Source: Luteibacter flocculans
GTDB lineage: Bacteria; Pseudomonadota; Gammaproteobacteria; Xanthomonadales; Rhodanobacteraceae
Length of the DNA: 64,000 nt
Direction of reading: 5' to 3'
NCBI RefSeq assembly: GCF_023612255.1
Contig: NZ_CP063231.1
Span: forward strand, 2,772,001-2,836,000
How positions within the stretch are numbered: the first letter of the stretch is position 1; each line of letters starts with the position of its first letter. Below the pieces are notes generated by a model. That model did not search any database. It saw nothing but the letters and a program-made list of their open reading frames with translations, and was not told where the DNA came from. Made by a program: the position numbers and the translations under genes. Shown piece after piece: positions 365 to 5,817 of the stretch.

Positions 365-1645
365 ATGAATGATTTCGAAGCGACGCGCGCCTGGGCCGAA
401 GCCCAGGACGCCGCCGATCCTCTCCGCTCGTTCCGCGACGCCTTCCACATCCCGCCGCACGACGGCGGCGACGCGCTGTATTTCTGCGGCAACTCGCTCG
501 GGCTGCAACCGAAAACCGTGCGCGCCGCGATCGAGGCCGAGTTGGCCGACTGGTCGGAACTGGCGGTGGAAGCGCACTTCCGCGGTCGTTCGCCGTGGAT
601 GCATTACCACGAGTACGTGCGCGACGCGATGGCCGAGGTGGTGGGAGCGCAGCCGCACGAAGTCGTGGCGATGAACTCGCTTGGCGTGAATCTGCACCTC
701 ATGATGGTCAGCTTCTATCGCCCGACGGCGGAGCGTCCGGCCATCCTCATGGAGGCTGGCGCATTTCCCACCGACCGCTATGCGCTGGAATCGCAGGTCC
801 GCTTCCATGGCTTCGATCCATCGCGCGACCTCGTCGAGATCGCGCCGGACGGCCCTGGCGGCATCTTGTCCTTAGAGGCGATCGAACGCGCCATCGCCGA
901 GCACGGACACCGGGTGGCCTTGATCCTGCTGCCGGGCGTGCAATACCGCACCGGCCAGGTATTCGACCTCGCGCGCATCGTCCAGCTCGGCCACGCGCAG
1001 GGTTGCGTGGTCGGTTTCGATCTCGCCCATGCGGTCGGCAATCTCGCTCTCGCGCTGCATGACAGCGGCGCCGACTTCGCCGTGTGGTGTACGTACAAGT
1101 ACCTCAACGCCGGTCCGGGCGCTGTGGCAGGCGCCTTCGTCCACGAACGACACGCGCGCGCCGAGCTTCCGCGCTTCGCCGGATGGTGGGGCCACGACAA
1201 GGCCACGCGCTTCCAAATGGGGCCGCAGTTCGTGCCCACGCCGGGTGCGGACGGTTGGCAGTTGTCGAACCCGCCCATCCTCGCGCTCGCGCCGCTGCGG
1301 GCATCGCTGGAGCTGTTCACGCAAGCGGGCATGGCGCGGCTCGCCGCGAAGAGCCGTCGTCTTACCGGCTACCTCGACTGGCTTATCCGCACGCGTCTCG
1401 CCGAGACCCTCGACATCGTTACGCCCAACGATCCTGCACAACGCGGCGCGCAGTTGTCCGTCCGCGTACGCGCCGGGCGCGACGCCGGCCGTGCCTTGTT
1501 CGCGCATCTCGAACGACATGGCGTGATCGGCGACTGGCGCGAGCCCGACGTGATCCGGTTGTCGCCGACGCCGCTCTACAACCGCTATCTCGATTGCCTC
1601 GGTGCCGTGGAAACCATCGCATCCTGGCAGGCGACGTCGGCATGA
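365..1645 (+). CDS. kynU: Kynureninase (L-kynurenine hydrolase)
   Basis: PLP enzyme that cleaves L-kynurenine to anthranilate and alanine, or 3-hydroxykynurenine to 3-hydroxyanthranilate. The 426-residue length is usual for the family. The fold-type I core is visible: FCGNSLGLQPK near residue 40, FDLAHAVGN around 218-226 (the Asp that contacts the PLP pyridine nitrogen and the following His), and WCTYKYLNAGPG around 241-252 with Lys245 as the expected Schiff-base lysine. ATG at 365 was chosen over in-frame upstream starts because family members begin close to this point and the upstream part overlaps the previous gene. The stop overlaps the next start (ATGA). It may feed the aminomuconate enzymes at 52-54 kb or NAD synthesis; the other kynurenine-pathway genes are not here. 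Confidence 0.95.
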   Translation: MNDFEATRAWAEAQDAADPLRSFRDAFHIPPHDGGDALYFCGNSLGLQPKTVRAAIEAELADWSELAVEAHFRGRSPWMHYHEYVRDAMAEVVGAQPHEVVAMNSLGVNLHLMMVSFYRPTAERPAILMEAGAFPTDRYALESQVRFHGFDPSRDLVEIAPDGPGGILSLEAIERAIAEHGHRVALILLPGVQYRTGQVFDLARIVQLGHAQGCVVGFDLAHAVGNLALALHDSGADFAVWCTYKYLNAGPGAVAGAFVHERHARAELPRFAGWWGHDKATRFQMGPQFVPTPGADGWQLSNPPILALAPLRASLELFTQAGMARLAAKSRRLTGYLDWLIRTRLAETLDIVTPNDPAQRGAQLSVRVRAGRDAGRALFAHLERHGVIGDWREPDVIRLSPTPLYNRYLDCLGAVETIASWQATSA

Positions 1646-2343
1646 GCGAGCAGGAACTCTACCCTCTGCCGTACAGCGAGCGCGGCGATGGATTCGCGGT
1701 GCAGGCCGTGACGCATTGGCTGCGCATCGCACCCGGACGGGTCCTGCTGGGTCTCAAGGCGGGCGGCCTGCCGGTCGCTCTGCCCGACCGCCCTGCGACG
1801 GTCTCGCACGGCGGCATCGTGGCGAAGGTCGATGGTCACCTCACCGCGGTGGACGACGTCAGTAGCGTCTGGCTACGCGACCGCCCCAAGGTGATCGACC
1901 AGTACGTCGCCGCACTGCGCACGGTGCTCAAGCACCCACGGTTGCGCCTCGACGGCTACGCCACGCACATCATCTTTACCGGCTCGGTCGAACTTTTCGT
2001 CGGATCGCGCATGGACCGCGTGGACCTCGAACTCGACGACGAAGACGGTTCCTTCGCCCGTGCATTGGAACTCCTGCGCGAGGCGCCTCACGACACCCGC
2101 ACCGCCTTCGCCATGCCGCCCGAACCGGGCATGGGCGCGTACGATGAGCCCCTCTACCTCGCTGGCGAACAAGCGTGGATCGATGGACGACGCGTGCTCA
2201 TCGAATACTCGCCCGACGAAGGCGGGCGCACGGAAACCGTAGCCCTCGACCGCGATCCGCTCGCCAACGCCATCGAGCGGGCGTGGTACGCCATGATCGC
2301 CGTGTCCGAACGCATCCGCAGCGGCTTGGGTCAGATGATGTGA
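1642..2343 (+). CDS. Uncharacterised protein translationally coupled to kynureninase
   Basis: 233 residues, starting at an ATG that overlaps the kynureninase stop in an ATGA arrangement, so the two are very likely translationally coupled. No signal peptide, membrane segment or known motif is recognised. The protein is acidic, with a middle stretch DLELDDEDG around residues 130-140, and has a mostly soluble composition. Coupling suggests a role linked to tryptophan/kynurenine catabolism, but the sequence alone shows no enzymatic signature. It ends 14 bases before the convergent ABC ATPase gene, so it marks the left border of the low-GC peptide cassette. Confidence 0.75.
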   Translation: MSEQELYPLPYSERGDGFAVQAVTHWLRIAPGRVLLGLKAGGLPVALPDRPATVSHGGIVAKVDGHLTAVDDVSSVWLRDRPKVIDQYVAALRTVLKHPRLRLDGYATHIIFTGSVELFVGSRMDRVDLELDDEDGSFARALELLREAPHDTRTAFAMPPEPGMGAYDEPLYLAGEQAWIDGRRVLIEYSPDEGGRTETVALDRDPLANAIERAWYAMIAVSERIRSGLGQMM

Positions 2344-2357
2344 CGTGGGATTTGCGT

Positions 2358-2999
2358 TCAAAAGCGCAGAATGCTTCCACCTGGCAGGCTCTCCAACCTA
2401 TGCCTACGTAGCTCGGCTCGCTCAAGTACGGACGGTTCGTGGCACGTTAGAACGATGAGCCGGTCGGCAGGCTGCGTACGGATCAATTCGACTAGAACAC
2501 TTACGGCATCCCGATCCAATCCGACGGTCGGCTCATCGAGAACGATGAAATCCGCGGCGGTTACCAACGCCATATGCAACAGCACACGCTTGCGCCAACC
2601 CAAGGACAGGTCGCCAAAGCAAACCTCCGACACCTGATGGAGCCCAAACGGATCGGCGACATCGAGCGGATCGGCTACGCAGCGCGCCCCCTGCAAGGAA
2701 AGATAAAGCTGTAAGGCGGACGACACCGTGACGCCCTCGAAGAACGTTGGCTCCGCGGGCACGAAGGCGAGCTGCCTCCGATGCTTCGGGCGCTTGGCAA
2801 ACATGTCCCTGCCATCGAGTAAAACGCGTCCAGCTGTCGGCGCCAACGTGCCCGACATGATGGACAGCAGCGTGCTCTTGCCGGCGCCATTGTTCCCTTC
2901 GATCAGATGCAAGCCGGGTCGCAAGACGGCCGTGGCATCGCGGAGGACACAACGCGACCCATAGCCCTTGCGAACGCCGGCCAGGATCAGCTCGGCCAT
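2358..2999 (-). CDS. ABC transporter ATP-binding protein of the peptide cassette
   Basis: 213-residue stand-alone nucleotide-binding domain. Walker A is GNNGAGKST (about residues 35-43), the Q-loop region lies near FVPAEP, the signature is the degenerate LSLGWRKR in place of LSGGQ, Walker B plus D-loop is VLDEPTVGLD, and the switch histidine is in LTCHEP. It has no N-terminal C39 peptidase domain, so it cannot itself cleave a leader peptide. ATG at 2999 was chosen; it overlaps the end of the permease gene by 13 bases, so the two are coupled. It is the last gene of the four-gene cassette and probably powers export of, or self-protection against, the modified peptide. Which of these it does is inference. 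Confidence 0.88.
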   Translation of the reverse strand: MAELILAGVRKGYGSRCVLRDATAVLRPGLHLIEGNNGAGKSTLLSIMSGTLAPTAGRVLLDGRDMFAKRPKHRRQLAFVPAEPTFFEGVTVSSALQLYLSLQGARCVADPLDVADPFGLHQVSEVCFGDLSLGWRKRVLLHMALVTAADFIVLDEPTVGLDRDAVSVLVELIRTQPADRLIVLTCHEPSVLERAELRRHRLESLPGGSILRF

Positions 3000-4003
3000 G
3001 CGAGCCTCGCCATGCCTGCAATCAAGGGACTGAATGCAGCAAGCCAGTCGGCGGCCCCGTCCATGCGAAGGTGCCGAAGCACACCGAGCAGGGTTGCACC
3101 CCCAACCAATCCCGACAGCAGCACGGCGATGGAAGCGAAACCGCTCGACACGAACATACCAACGAGCAGCACAATCACGGAGGCGAGTATCGTCAAGACA
3201 AGCAAGCGCGCCACACATAGCGCATGCAACGAGCGTGTCGTCGAGAGCATCGGCACCAGGCGATGGGTCTCCACGCGGAGAACATCGGCCACGCCACGCA
3301 AAACCCACACGATGATGCCAGCCATGCCGCAAAGTACCTCGGGCGCGCTGATGCCGCCCTCGTTAATCCATCGAAAGCTGCACATCGCACATAAGGCGAT
3401 GAGCAGATAGCGCATTGCCAACCAGGGCTTACCCATCGGTAGCGCGTCCACGATCGCATGACGCCCCAAGACACTCCATCGAGAGGCACCACCATGAATC
3501 CACGCCGCGCATCGATGCCTGTAGCGCCATCCCAGCGCGTCGACGATGAAACCTGAGGCAGCGGAGAGAAACAACGCCGCCGCATACCAGGGCAACCGCT
3601 CCGGACGACCGACGAGCGCGGCGCCAAACAAAAAAGGAACCAATGGCCATCCTGTAATGACCAGCGGCACCGCGGCATTGATACGAGCGAACGATGGCGA
3701 CACTACCACCGACAGCGCTACAAAGTGCGTCGTACAGGCTTGAAACGGACGATTCACTCCAACCCAGGTCGACCAGAGAAGCAAGACCAAAAAAAATGCG
3801 CCGACACGAAGCCGAATATCGGCGGTATCGTCGCCCATGATGAGAATGGGCGACATGAGTAATTCGGGCACCGACGCAAGAGGAACCAAAACAAACGCAA
3901 CGGTGAATAGGGTGCGCCTCTGCCTTGCGAAGTAAGCGACGGATCGATACCGATAGGTGAGCCAACTAGCTCTCGCGGCAAGGAGCACTGTCACAGAATT
4001 CAC
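2987..4003 (-). CDS. ABC transporter permease of the peptide cassette
   Basis: 338 residues with about eight hydrophobic segments (first near residues 30-50, a strong pair close to the C-terminus), which fits a transporter membrane subunit paired with the following ATPase. The GTG at 4003 was preferred over a TTG at 4045. It lies four bases after the kinase-like gene's stop and has a Shine-Dalgarno-like AGAGGGA at suitable distance inside the end of that gene. No close subfamily was recognised. GC content is visibly lower than in the flanking biosynthetic genes. Likely role: moving the cassette's peptide product across the inner membrane, or immunity. Topology and subfamily are estimates by eye. 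Confidence 0.8.
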   Translation of the reverse strand: MNSVTVLLAARASWLTYRYRSVAYFARQRRTLFTVAFVLVPLASVPELLMSPILIMGDDTADIRLRVGAFFLVLLLWSTWVGVNRPFQACTTHFVALSVVVSPSFARINAAVPLVITGWPLVPFLFGAALVGRPERLPWYAAALFLSAASGFIVDALGWRYRHRCAAWIHGGASRWSVLGRHAIVDALPMGKPWLAMRYLLIALCAMCSFRWINEGGISAPEVLCGMAGIIVWVLRGVADVLRVETHRLVPMLSTTRSLHALCVARLLVLTILASVIVLLVGMFVSSGFASIAVLLSGLVGGATLLGVLRHLRMDGAADWLAAFSPLIAGMARLAWPS

Positions 4004-4007
4004 TGGC

Positions 4008-5372
4008 TTATCCCTCTGAACTCGAAGGGAGAGGCTTTCGTCCAAACGAGGTAAAACCCGGGGTCATTGCCCCCATCAAGCGCTTCAACGCCGCCAAGGC
4101 GAACTCATCCCACGCATCCCTTCTCGGCGGGCTAGCTAGTAGCTCATTCAAATCGACAATGCGATTGGCACGAAGGGATTCCTTCGCTCCATCCACAAAC
4201 AGAACCGACAGAAGAAAGTGCATGGAATACGCTGTGAATCGATCGATATCGTCAACGCCGAACGCACGAAACGAAACAGGCATATCCTCCTTTCGATCCG
4301 AGCAAACGCCCTGGCACGACTCGAGGTCAATCAATCGCAACGATGATCCGGTCACGACGAAGTTGGATAGCTTGACGTCCCCAAGAACGAACCCCGCGAA
4401 GTGCGCCTTGGAAATGATATCGACTGCCTTATCGACCCATGAAACGTCAGATGACAAGGAACTTCTGGCGGCAAACAGGTCTTCACCGCTCAACCTTTCA
4501 AGAAGCAGGATTGATGCATCAGCCTCGTCCGAAAATTCGATGACATGAGGCAAGTGCGTGCCCATCCCCCTCGCCGTCATCAACGCATACATCCGTGCCT
4601 CATGACGCACGAAATGCGCACCGTCTCGACCATCGGGCAACTCCGCACCATGCCGTAGGCCTAATTTCGCGATGCATTCATCGCCCGAACGAACGTCCGT
4701 CGCTATAAAGACTCCTCCTTTTCCGGATCTGCAGATCACCGAACGGACAGGGTATCGAGCCAGCAGCGATGGGCTGTCATGCCTACTTGGAGGTGCTTCC
4801 CTATGTCTCACAACATCCCACAGTGCGTACTGGTCCAGAACGTCAATCACTGCCTTCGGGTCATCCCTGTCGTCGACTACGTCGCGACCATCGATCGACA
4901 ACGTCGTACCGCGATAGGCCCCGTACCTAAGGAAAGCTGGTATCCCCCGCCAAAGCTGCTGAAGTCTGGGAACGACCGGACCGAAGTGCCCACTAACACC
5001 GAGCCATTGGCGCAATGCAGTCAAAGCTTCTGCACTGCTTTCCGGGGTCTCAAGGTAGGCAACGAGATTCTTTCCAACCTGCGAAAAGCCGAACAAGCCA
5101 ATATTGGCTTGGCAGAGATGATCGATGGAACGGAGATACTTGAACGCAATTCCATGGCGAAGGAAGACGGGAGCCGCATTCAGAATCAGACTTATGTAGT
5201 TTGCGGGAGTTGCAGACACATAGAGCTTCCAGCCCTGGCTCACCTGTCGTGACGGAGTTCCAACTCCATACCAGTGAGGCGTTTCAGCCCAGTCGACGTC
5301 ACCAAAGTCGCGTGGCGATGGAAACCGCTCGATAGCCTCAGTCCGCTCGAAAACAACATCAGTGCCTTCCAT
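4008..5372 (-). CDS. Class III lanthipeptide synthetase-like protein: lyase-like plus kinase domain, no cyclase
   Basis: 454 residues. Residues about 45-105 resemble the phosphothreonine-lyase domain of LanKC enzymes: QGWKLYVSATPAN (46-58), FKYL (77-80) and a GK pair (100-101). Canonical enzymes have a catalytic His in KxHVSA; here it is Tyr51, while Lys49 and Lys78 remain. Residues about 205-400 form a kinase domain with apparently complete chemistry: CIAK (Lys236), Glu258 in RHEAR, catalytic loop GDVKLSN (Asp332, Asn337) and metal-binding LIDLES (Asp349). The protein then ends, whereas LanKC proteins continue with a LanC cyclase of about 400 residues. The ATG has GGGAG eight bases upstream and lies 22 bases after the precursor gene. 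Inferred role: phosphorylation, and perhaps elimination, of Thr residues in that peptide. GC is low (29 of 60 bases at 4201-4260). Confidence 0.82.
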   Translation of the reverse strand: MEGTDVVFERTEAIERFPSPRDFGDVDWAETPHWYGVGTPSRQVSQGWKLYVSATPANYISLILNAAPVFLRHGIAFKYLRSIDHLCQANIGLFGFSQVGKNLVAYLETPESSAEALTALRQWLGVSGHFGPVVPRLQQLWRGIPAFLRYGAYRGTTLSIDGRDVVDDRDDPKAVIDVLDQYALWDVVRHREAPPSRHDSPSLLARYPVRSVICRSGKGGVFIATDVRSGDECIAKLGLRHGAELPDGRDGAHFVRHEARMYALMTARGMGTHLPHVIEFSDEADASILLLERLSGEDLFAARSSLSSDVSWVDKAVDIISKAHFAGFVLGDVKLSNFVVTGSSLRLIDLESCQGVCSDRKEDMPVSFRAFGVDDIDRFTAYSMHFLLSVLFVDGAKESLRANRIVDLNELLASPPRRDAWDEFALAALKRLMGAMTPGFTSFGRKPLPSSSEG

Positions 5373-5394
5373 GGCCGAAGCTCCCTGATAGTGA

Positions 5395-5589
5395 TTAGTG
5401 CGCCTTACCCGGCCAGAGAACGGTGGTGAGCGTGATAGTCACGGTAATCGGAAGTACGTTTGCTCCTTTGTCGCCTCCAGCCATGTTCATGGCCTCAAGC
5501 GGCGAGGTTGCAAGGACGGGTTGAATCGGTGCGGTATCCGCGATGGATACGCAAACGGCATCTACTTCCCGTTGGACCATGCGGTACAT
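5395..5589 (-). CDS. Candidate RiPP precursor peptide with Thr-alternating core
   Basis: 64 residues, first gene of the cassette. The ATG at 5587-5589 is preceded by a strong AGGAG with six-base spacing, which supports this start over one 24 codons upstream. The N-terminal half looks like a leader (acidic and hydrophobic mix, SPLEAMNMAGG at 29-39 reminiscent of double-Gly leaders). The C-terminal part, ITVTITLTTVLWPGKAH (48-64), alternates Thr with Ile, Val or Leu, giving five Thr residues (49, 51, 53, 55, 56). The only Cys is at position 13 in the leader region, so ordinary lanthionine rings cannot form in the core. Position, size and the neighbouring synthetase-like gene support a precursor role. 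No homologue is recognised. Confidence 0.72.
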   Translation of the reverse strand: MYRMVQREVDAVCVSIADTAPIQPVLATSPLEAMNMAGGDKGANVLPITVTITLTTVLWPGKAH

Positions 5590-5595
5590 GTCGAA

Positions 5596-5600
5596 CTCCT
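5596..5600 (-). promoter_or_regulatory. Ribosome-binding site of the precursor peptide gene
   Basis: On the minus strand these bases read AGGAG, with six bases to the ATG ending at 5589. It is the strongest Shine-Dalgarno match in the cassette and decides the start of the 64-residue peptide. Strong translation of the first gene is what one expects for a precursor needed in excess over its enzymes. Confidence 0.75.
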
Positions 5601-5610
5601 GTCGGTTAAC

Positions 5611-5632
5611 CCGCTTGCGGACTTGCAAGCGG
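5611..5632. promoter_or_regulatory. Perfect 8-bp inverted repeat in the cassette's upstream region
   Basis: CCGCTTGC at 5611-5618 and GCAAGCGG at 5625-5632 are perfect inverted copies separated by six bases. The element ends ten bases before the AGGAG of the precursor gene. In DNA it could be an operator; in RNA it would form a GC-rich hairpin in the leader, controlling ribosome access or RNA stability. No promoter could be placed confidently in 5633-5817. Confidence 0.5.
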
Positions 5633-5817
5633 TCCTGCACGGTAGTCCGGAACAAGAGCACGCCATATCAGTGTTTTCCGACATTCATGTGGGCCGCCTG
5701 GGATAGCATCCGCAATAGCTCTCAGCGGCACACCGAAATCAGCTACGCACCACGTCATCGTGACTGACCCGTCGCGCAGGGTATCCAACATCGGGATGTG
5801 AACGCGTTGCCATCCCA
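5633..5817. other. Intergenic stretch between proA and the peptide cassette
   Basis: This 185-base stretch should hold the cassette promoter. An open frame beginning with GTG at 5818 on the minus strand and running to 5606 could encode 70 residues. It shares no family motif, and its GTG overlaps the proA stop by one base without a ribosome-binding site, so it is not called as a gene. No convincing -35/-10 pair was found. A cassette promoter here is therefore inference from gene order. Confidence 0.4.

What the first reader, a model, noticed from the sequence alone, without database searches (positions are those of the whole stretch)
2358..5589. Four-gene peptide cassette with a cyclase-less lanthipeptide synthetase
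Seen: a 64-codon gene with a strong ribosome-binding site, then a 454-residue lyase-like plus kinase protein, an ABC permease and an ABC ATPase, all on one strand with gaps of 22 and 4 bases and an overlap of 13 bases. Known: class III and IV lanthipeptide loci pair a small precursor with a lyase-kinase-cyclase enzyme and a transporter. Inferred: this is a RiPP locus of an atypical kind, because the cyclase is absent and the precursor core has no Cys. The product might be a linear dehydrobutyrine-rich or phosphothreonine-rich peptide. I do not recall a described family with exactly this set.
Basis: partly seen in the sequence, partly recalled or inferred. Interest (0 to 1): 0.92.

Follow-up and report, generated by a model that had tools for sequence, protein, structure and literature searches.

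The report
Peptide cassette with cyclase-less lanthipeptide synthetase
A bacterium carries a small, probably foreign gene cassette that seems to make a short threonine-rich peptide, mark its threonines with a two-step enzyme that lacks the usual ring-forming part, and pump the product out, pointing to a little-known kind of linear modified peptide.

Summary
In detail: a 64-codon frame, a 454-aa RamC_N lyase plus kinase protein, a permease and an ABC ATPase, on one strand, with the stated gaps. The protein has no LanC domain and the permease starts 4 bases after it; the genome's two LANC_like matches lie outside the window. The cassette has lower GC than its flanks and sits in a variable spot behind proA. 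No ortholog of the synthetase was found, so conservation of the 64-codon frame cannot be tested. Cyclase-less relatives exist: one in Salipiger and two in Verrucomicrobia-phylum genomes, each beside a small ORF. These three form a supported clade (100/98.6); the window protein joins it only weakly (95/71). Of 46 aligned lyases only the window's lacks the equivalents of ThurKC His67 and Asp152, while the kinase residues checked are intact, so elimination may be slow or altered. Best reading: a RiPP cassette making a linear peptide with dehydrobutyrine, phosphothreonine or both, and no thioether. A new variant of a known kind; chemistry untested.

The parts
5395..5589 (-). 64-aa precursor-like peptide; possible GG site after residue 39, core with five Thr and no Cys, C-terminal His
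   Evidence: AGGAG before ATG; codon score; no family match in Pfam, NCBIfam, PHROGs or PADLOC; next best match in the own genome only E 0.24
4008..5372 (-). 454-aa LanKC/LanL-type protein: lyase domain (RamC_N, about aa 30-166) and Ser/Thr kinase (profile matches about 202-364), no LanC cyclase
2987..4003 (-). 338-aa membrane permease, several hydrophobic segments, no family match above cut-off
   Evidence: homologue at the same place in G122, 25% identity
2358..2999 (-). 213-aa ABC transporter ATPase
   Evidence: (ABC_tran 4.3e-22); homologue at the same place in G122, 50% identity
5590..5817 (.). 228-base gap between proA and the cassette; presumed 5' region, no sigma-70-like match found

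Best explanation
This is a RiPP cassette, probably acquired horizontally. The kinase domain phosphorylates Thr in the core of the 64-aa peptide, and the fused lyase domain eliminates some or all of the phosphate. Because neither a cyclase nor a core Cys is present, the product is a linear Thr-derived peptide (dehydrobutyrine, phosphothreonine or a mixture) without thioether rings. It is then exported, or kept from harming the producer, by the ABC pair. Shown: the gene set, the domain make-up, the missing cyclase, the kinase and lyase residues kept or lost, the deviating base composition, and cyclase-less relatives beside small ORFs. Inferred: that the ORF is the substrate, the chemistry, the direction of transport, the leader cleavage site and the horizontal origin. 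The first rival is the no-elimination end of this reading, so the two odds overlap.
For: RamC_N match and LanL/LanKC model matches confined to residues 30-364 of 454. The best PDB matches by sequence and by fold are class III synthetases (the fold hits have E down to 3.3e-21 but TM-scores of only about 0.3, as the model is of low to middling confidence). All kinase residues checked are kept (Lys, Glu, Asp, Asn, DFE Asp and Glu), as are the equivalents of ThurKC lyase K65, K94, K117, R163 and R191 (residue roles from passages of PMC10604976). Tight same-strand spacing and good ribosome-binding sites for the first two genes. Cyclase-less relatives: Salipiger plasmid (528 aa) behind two Thr-rich ORFs, Verrucomicrobia MAG (481 aa) behind a GG-leader ORF without Cys, and G1256 (458-aa frame) behind a 113-aa ORF whose leader resembles Salipiger's; no LANC_like match in the Salipiger plasmid or in the genome of the first Verrucomicrobia case. 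GC 54-61% in the four cassette genes against 66-68% in five flanking genes.
Against: No ortholog, so the peptide-enzyme pairing at this very locus is not confirmed by conservation. P0002 lacks His67 and Asp152 of ThurKC, kept in 45 of 45 other aligned sequences, and also Lys108 (as do P0005, P0006 and 15 of 43 others; 8 of those 15 have Arg); ThurKC K108A makes no dehydrations and D152A few. So elimination may fail. P0001 has no LxLQxL-type leader motif and no peptidase gene is in the cassette. The proposed core of the G1256 ORF is poor in Thr. The Verrucomicrobia ORF of L078 has a GTG start and no clear Shine-Dalgarno site (by eye). G122 keeps only the ABC pair.
Confidence: 0.6

Rival explanations
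1. The lyase half no longer eliminates: the enzyme is in effect a peptide kinase, and the product is a phosphothreonine peptide. The lyase fold survives as a phosphopeptide- or leader-binding module. (The no-elimination end of the best explanation; odds overlap.)
For: P0002 alone of 46 aligned sequences lost both His67 (to Tyr) and Asp152 (to Leu), while the basic lyase residues K65, K94, K117, R163 and R191 and all kinase residues checked stay. In ThurKC, H67A leaves dehydrated and phosphorylated intermediates, and D152A makes at most five dehydrations with most of the peptide unmodified (PMC10604976 passages). Papers on lasso-peptide phosphorylation were listed (listing only; that such phosphorylated RiPPs exist is otherwise recalled).
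Against: The class V lyase CaoY also lacks the SpvC His106 equivalent and still eliminates (PMC9486802 passages). Lys49, Lys78 and Tyr106 are kept (that Tyr106 stands for SpvC Tyr158 is inferred). H67A of ThurKC still dehydrates in part.
Confidence: 0.25
2. A decaying remnant of a lanthipeptide locus with no working product.
For: Two lyase residues lost that are invariant in the other 45 sequences, long branch (3.3), single genome, low model confidence in the C-terminal part.
Against: No stop or frameshift; good ribosome-binding sites; kinase residues checked all intact; a 4-base gap to the permease leaves no cyclase debris; the protein does not branch with 17 LanKCs of its own genus (p-AU 0.00095).
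Confidence: 0.1
3. A cyclase acts in trans, for example that of the genome's full LanKC or of its other LANC_like protein, giving an ordinary lanthipeptide or another crosslink.
For: Two LANC_like frames exist elsewhere in the genome. A His-to-butyrine crosslink made by LanKC enzymes is known (noursin, PMC10206099, abstract and introduction seen), and P0001 ends in His.
Against: No Cys in the proposed core. The full LanKC has its own plausible precursor with an LSLQLL leader, and both LANC frames are over 600 kb away. The Salipiger plasmid and the Verrucomicrobia genome of L078 have no LANC_like match (the Salipiger chromosome and G1256 were not searched for it).
Confidence: 0.04
4. Not a RiPP: the small ORF is spurious or a signalling or regulatory peptide, and the kinase regulates the transporter or another protein.
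For: The ORF has no relatives; ORFs of this kind arise in about 1.5% of shuffles (291 of 20000); one antisense frame scores nearly as well; the ABC pair occurs without the enzyme in G122.
Against: Codon score and SD site; a fused phospho-lyase has no known role in plain signalling by kinases (recalled); relatives sit behind small ORFs of RiPP type, one with a weak NHLP-clan match (E 0.0016, below cut-off).
Confidence: 0.12

Closest known systems
Class III and IV lanthipeptide synthetases (LanKC, LanL; ThurKC, CurKC/CuvL)
   Same: RamC_N phospho-Ser/Thr lyase fused to a Ser/Thr kinase with the DFE motif, small upstream ORF, ABC transporter
   Different: no LanC domain at all, no Cys in the core, no LxLQxL leader motif, His67 and Asp152 lost
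Class V dehydratase (LanK + LanY, e.g. CaoK/CaoY) and thioamitide enzymes
   Same: kinase and lyase without a fused cyclase; CaoY also works without the catalytic His (PMC9486802 passages)
   Different: separate proteins, APH-type kinase and HopA1-type lyase; here one chain with RamC_N lyase and an STK-type kinase
Class VI synthetases (LanKCb) of streptococci (He et al. 2023, known here only through passages of reviews PMC10676316 and PMC12328550)
   Same: reduced LanKC-type architecture
   Different: reported with kinase and truncated cyclase and lyase domains, making small rings, and only from streptococci
Predicted archaeal BLES03-like lyase plus kinase clusters (PMC4159009 passages)
   Same: lyase and kinase genes near transporters and a small C/T/S-rich protein, proposed to make lanthipeptide-like products
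   Different: separate genes and a different lyase family; a prediction, not compared here by sequence
Linaridins (product type only)
   Same: linear, dehydrobutyrine-bearing (recalled; listing)
   Different: made by unrelated enzymes (recalled); no linaridin gene family was hit by the four proteins
Cyclase-less lyase-kinases found here (Salipiger WP_193789577.1, L078, L129)
   Same: lyase plus kinase, no cyclase, small ORF upstream, [FY]GFSQIGK loop in two of the three as in P0002 (FGFSQVGK)
   Different: keep His67 and Asp152 (two checked; for L129 read from its translation); other neighbours (methyltransferase; HlyD; cyclase-like proteins) instead of this ABC pair

Membership tests
[quoted passage not shown]
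   PF25816 9.7e-18, 64.8 bits against cut-off 27
Class III/IV lanthipeptide synthetase | Ser/Thr kinase domain with intact catalytic residues | tested here: met
   Lys, Glu, Asp, Asn, DFE Asp and Glu all kept; the Pfam Pkinase model itself did not match P0002; kinase fold match
Class III/IV lanthipeptide synthetase | C-terminal LanC-like cyclase | tested here: not met
   no LANC match in P0002, none of the genome's two LANC_like matches in the window
Class III/IV lanthipeptide synthetase | full set of lyase catalytic residues | tested here: not met
   His67 is Tyr and Asp152 is Leu in P0002 only; Lys108 also lost, as in P0005, P0006 and 15 of 43 others
Class III/IV lanthipeptide synthetase | curated NCBIfam cut-off reached | tested here: not met
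   128.9 bits against 650 (LanL) and 99.4 against 575 (LanKC)
Lanthipeptide (product) | Cys in the core for (Me)Lan or (Me)Lab | tested here: not met
   only Cys13, in the presumed leader
Class V lanthipeptide | separate APH-type kinase LanK and HopA1-type lyase LanY | tested here: not met
   a single fused chain; neither family among the Pfam hits of P0002
Class VI lanthipeptide (LanKCb) | truncated cyclase present | tested here: inconclusive
   no cyclase by profile, but LanKCb sequences were not at hand for comparison
Cyclase-less lyase-kinase clade (Salipiger, Verrucomicrobia) | shared descent | tested here: inconclusive
   three others form a clade at 100/98.6; P0002 joins at 95/71, not starred, long branch. 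A tree with P0005, P0006 and two full-length proteins (L030, L079) together and P0002 outside is not rejected (p-AU 0.233)
RiPP cassette | precursor is modified by the neighbouring enzyme | not testable with these tools
   needs co-expression and mass spectrometry

The most novel reading that the evidence does not exclude
A lanthipeptide-type synthetase without a cyclase that has also lost its lyase acid/base pair has become a dedicated peptide kinase, so that the cassette makes a secreted phosphothreonine peptide, a RiPP in which phosphate is the final mark and not an intermediate.
Probability: 0.22. Interest if true: 0.78.

Novelty: new variant of a known kind. Interest (0 to 1): 0.56.

Why it matters
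In the reviews and papers seen here, fused lyase-kinase synthetases come with a cyclase (truncated in class VI). A clade that does without it (Salipiger, two Verrucomicrobia-phylum genomes and perhaps this locus) would show that linear dehydro- or phosphopeptides are end products in their own right. It would also give genome mining a simple handle (RamC_N plus kinase, about 450-530 aa, no LanC). The natural loss of His67 and Asp152 is a ready test of which residues elimination really needs.

Tried and rejected
Rejected: truncation of the genus's own LanKC. P0002 held with 17 of the 18 same-genus LanKCs in the tree is rejected (p-AU 0.00095; the 18th, L022, is a separate lineage and was not in the test), and P0002 is only 22.5% identical to the LanKC of its own genome. 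Rejected: cyclase lost by frameshift; the permease starts 4 bases after the stop. Rejected: anti-phage defence; only weak kinase and ATPase cross-hits in PADLOC. Rejected as further cyclase-less cases: L006/L033 of G113 (the contig ends inside the gene); L071, L080 and L082 (frames run off the locus end); L012 and L024, whose 675-677-aa frames have a second frame directly beside them; Staphylococcus L064, with separate lyase, kinase and LanC frames.

Led nowhere: genome-contig scan with P0002 alone (six peptide patterns, 36 pattern matches, 0 relatives); P0003 against plasmids (no match); class-wide search with P0005 (257 of 369 genomes match; the places listed fall in its kinase part except the window genome's two; the list was cut and its frames were not screened for cyclase-less cases); phylum-wide RamC_N search (1 of 398, the own genome); search for a remnant of the enzyme in G122 between proA and the permease (no convincing match); PHROGs; promoter scan (0 found). 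No class VI synthetase sequence was available. Left out of the trees and of the residue count: fragments L031, L040, L064, L082 and duplicate loci; 43 others plus P0002, P0005 and P0006 were used, L129 being added only. Matches with short frames (G246, G283, G325) hit one domain only and were not counted as LanKC. In one search and in the searches the small gene after kynU was read one base out of frame, so its GC3 is not used here and its hits serve only to show position; kynU itself was in frame.

The AlphaFold model has mean pLDDT 64.2, with residues 357-383, 392-426 and 431-454 under 50; Foldseek TM-scores to LanKC structures are about 0.3. It supports the domain assignment but not active-site geometry.
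Full report
What is there. On the minus strand, behind proA, four frames follow each other: a 64-aa peptide (5395-5589), a 454-aa protein (4008-5372), a 338-aa permease (2987-4003) and a 213-aa ABC ATPase (2358-2999), with gaps of 22 and 4 bases and a 13-base overlap. The peptide has AGGAG shortly before its ATG. Its codon score is reached by 1 of 2000 shuffles under a cassette model and 0 of 2000 under a host model, although one antisense frame scores almost as well under the first. Shuffles of the region give an ORF of this sort in 291 of 20000 cases. It is probably a gene; that is not proof.

The enzyme. Pfam gives RamC_N at residues 30-166 (9.7e-18), and the NCBIfam LanL model aligns over 8-345 of 851 positions (2.1e-37, 128.9 bits against a cut-off of 650). 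The nearest solved structures by sequence and by predicted fold are class III synthetases (model mean pLDDT 64.2, TM-scores about 0.3). There is no LanC domain, and the permease starts 4 bases after the stop codon. The genome's two LANC_like matches lie at 2.14 and 4.19 Mb; the window is 2.772-2.836 Mb.

Catalytic residues. ThurKC's lyase residues were taken from passages of PMC10604976. In an alignment of 46 sequences (P0002, P0005, P0006 and 43 others) P0002 keeps the equivalents of K65, K94, K117, R163 and R191 but has Tyr for His67 and Leu for Asp152. Both are kept in P0005, P0006 and 43 of 43 others. Lys108 is missing in all three cyclase-less proteins, but it also varies among the others (K in 28 of 43, R in 8). 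The kinase Lys, Glu, catalytic Asp and Asn, and the DFE Asp and Glu are all kept. In ThurKC, H67A stalls with dehydrated and phosphorylated intermediates, D152A makes at most five dehydrations and K108A none. Against a dead lyase: class V CaoY lacks the same His and still eliminates phosphate (PMC9486802 passages).

Relatives. No ortholog was found. 20 of 233 family genomes and 35 of 398 order genomes have some match, but the only strong one is the window itself. In the family search, of the 22 other places, 20 lie in frames of 693-1006 aa, one (G113) runs into a contig end and one (G106) is a kinase-only match. A pattern-led scan of one genome per species (84,980 species) with P0002 found no relative. 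Cyclase-less lyase-kinases do exist elsewhere. Salipiger sp. CCB-MM3 has a 528-aa one (523 aa as annotated), with two Thr-rich small ORFs upstream. A Verrucomicrobia MAG has a 481-aa one, with a 62-aa GG-leader ORF without Cys upstream, though that ORF has a GTG start and no clear Shine-Dalgarno site. Both show RamC_N and Pkinase and no LanC in Pfam. In 303 genomes of that phylum RamC_N passes its cut-off in 2, the MAG itself and G1256, with open frames of 521 and 468 aa. The G1256 protein again has RamC_N and Pkinase only; a 113-aa ORF lies directly upstream, overlapping the frame as called, and its leader resembles that of Salipiger (40% over 47 columns, E 5e-7 for the single comparison), but its proposed core is poor in Thr. 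The Salipiger plasmid and the genome of the MAG have no LANC_like match; the Salipiger chromosome and G1256 were not searched. The three form a clade with 100/98.6 support. P0002 joins them at 95/71, which is not decisive because its branch is very long (3.3), and an arrangement with P0002 outside P0005, P0006 and two full-length proteins is not rejected (p-AU 0.233). A clade of P0002 with 17 LanKCs of its own genus is rejected (p-AU 0.00095).

Setting. The four cassette genes have GC 54-61% and GC3 0.57-0.71; five flanking genes have GC 66-68%, and the four of them read in frame have GC3 0.75-0.82. Regions behind proA were fetched from 16 of the 22 other genomes of the genus that searched (the other six gave no proA match there). 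kynU was found downstream in 15 of the 16, with stretches of very different size and content in between, some nearly empty. In one of the 16, G122, the permease (25% identity) and ATPase (50%) sit in the same place without the lyase-kinase; the only match to P0002 in G122 is a full LanKC. Over 233 family genomes the permease matches in 3, the third (G073) over about half its length with a stop in the frame. So the ABC pair can stand alone, which fits self-protection or general export as well as dedicated export.

Mechanism. Most likely the kinase domain phosphorylates the Thr residues in residues 49-56 of the peptide, the lyase domain removes phosphate from some or all of them, and with no cyclase and no core Cys the product stays linear. 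The GG at residues 38-39 is a possible cleavage site, but no peptidase is in the cassette. All chemistry is inferred.

Literature. Fused synthetases in the reviews and papers seen carry a cyclase; class VI is described with kinase and truncated cyclase and lyase domains (PMC10676316, PMC12328550: passages only). Separate lyase and kinase genes without a stated cyclase were predicted for archaeal BLES03-like clusters (PMC4159009 passages). Searches for cyclase-less lyase-kinase RiPP enzymes (20 of 41 papers listed; 14; 15 of 16; 7; 1; 3) showed no title or abstract start that describes such an enzyme. The library holds only open-licence PMC papers, and He et al. 2023 itself was not read. A Luteibacter paper (PMC11165876, passages) reports lanthipeptide clusters of classes I to IV by antiSMASH. 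That the window is from Luteibacter or a close genus is only a guess.

Verdict. New variant of a known kind.

Noticed in passing
G000:C1:4188000-4202000 (L032), LanKC at L032 4202-6865 (-): The same genome has a canonical class III LanKC (887 aa, NCBIfam over cut-off), with a likely precursor just upstream bearing an LSLQLL leader, and regulator-like and permease-like genes beyond (by eye).
   Followed up: partly
G000:C1:2143337-2144392 (L121): A second LANC_like frame (979 aa open, 130.5 bits), perhaps a class II LanM; not examined.
   Followed up: no
window 2344-5817 and loci L103-L118: The stretch between proA and the kynU-linked gene is a variable spot in this genus: nearly empty in some genomes, otherwise an MFS-like transporter, an outer-membrane-efflux-like protein, a HEAT-repeat-like protein or other cargo (names by eye from translations).
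   Followed up: partly
L103 oriented with proA on +, 1632-3337 (G122): Diverged copy of the permease and ATPase at the same site without the lyase-kinase; a 61-codon Cys-rich ORF (1380-1565) lies between proA and the permease, significance unknown.
   Followed up: partly
L029 5038-5322: The first Thr-rich precursor-like ORF of the Salipiger plasmid is not in the PLSDB gene table; the annotated CDS at 5250-5444 overlaps it in another frame.
   Followed up: partly
L031 5890-8196 (Planococcus lenghuensis plasmid): A further lyase fragment and kinase fragment, without an annotated cyclase in the stretch shown, are separated by an IS630 element.
   Followed up: no
L078 8241-8408 (-): A second small ORF with a similar leader (KLSDLTPKKDARGG) and a Pro-rich core lies downstream of the Verrucomicrobia enzyme, on the opposite strand.
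   Followed up: no
L129 4438-6537 and 8461-10827: In G1256 the lyase-kinase and its small ORF lie between two similar large proteins whose starts look like adenylate-cyclase domains (by eye).
   Followed up: no
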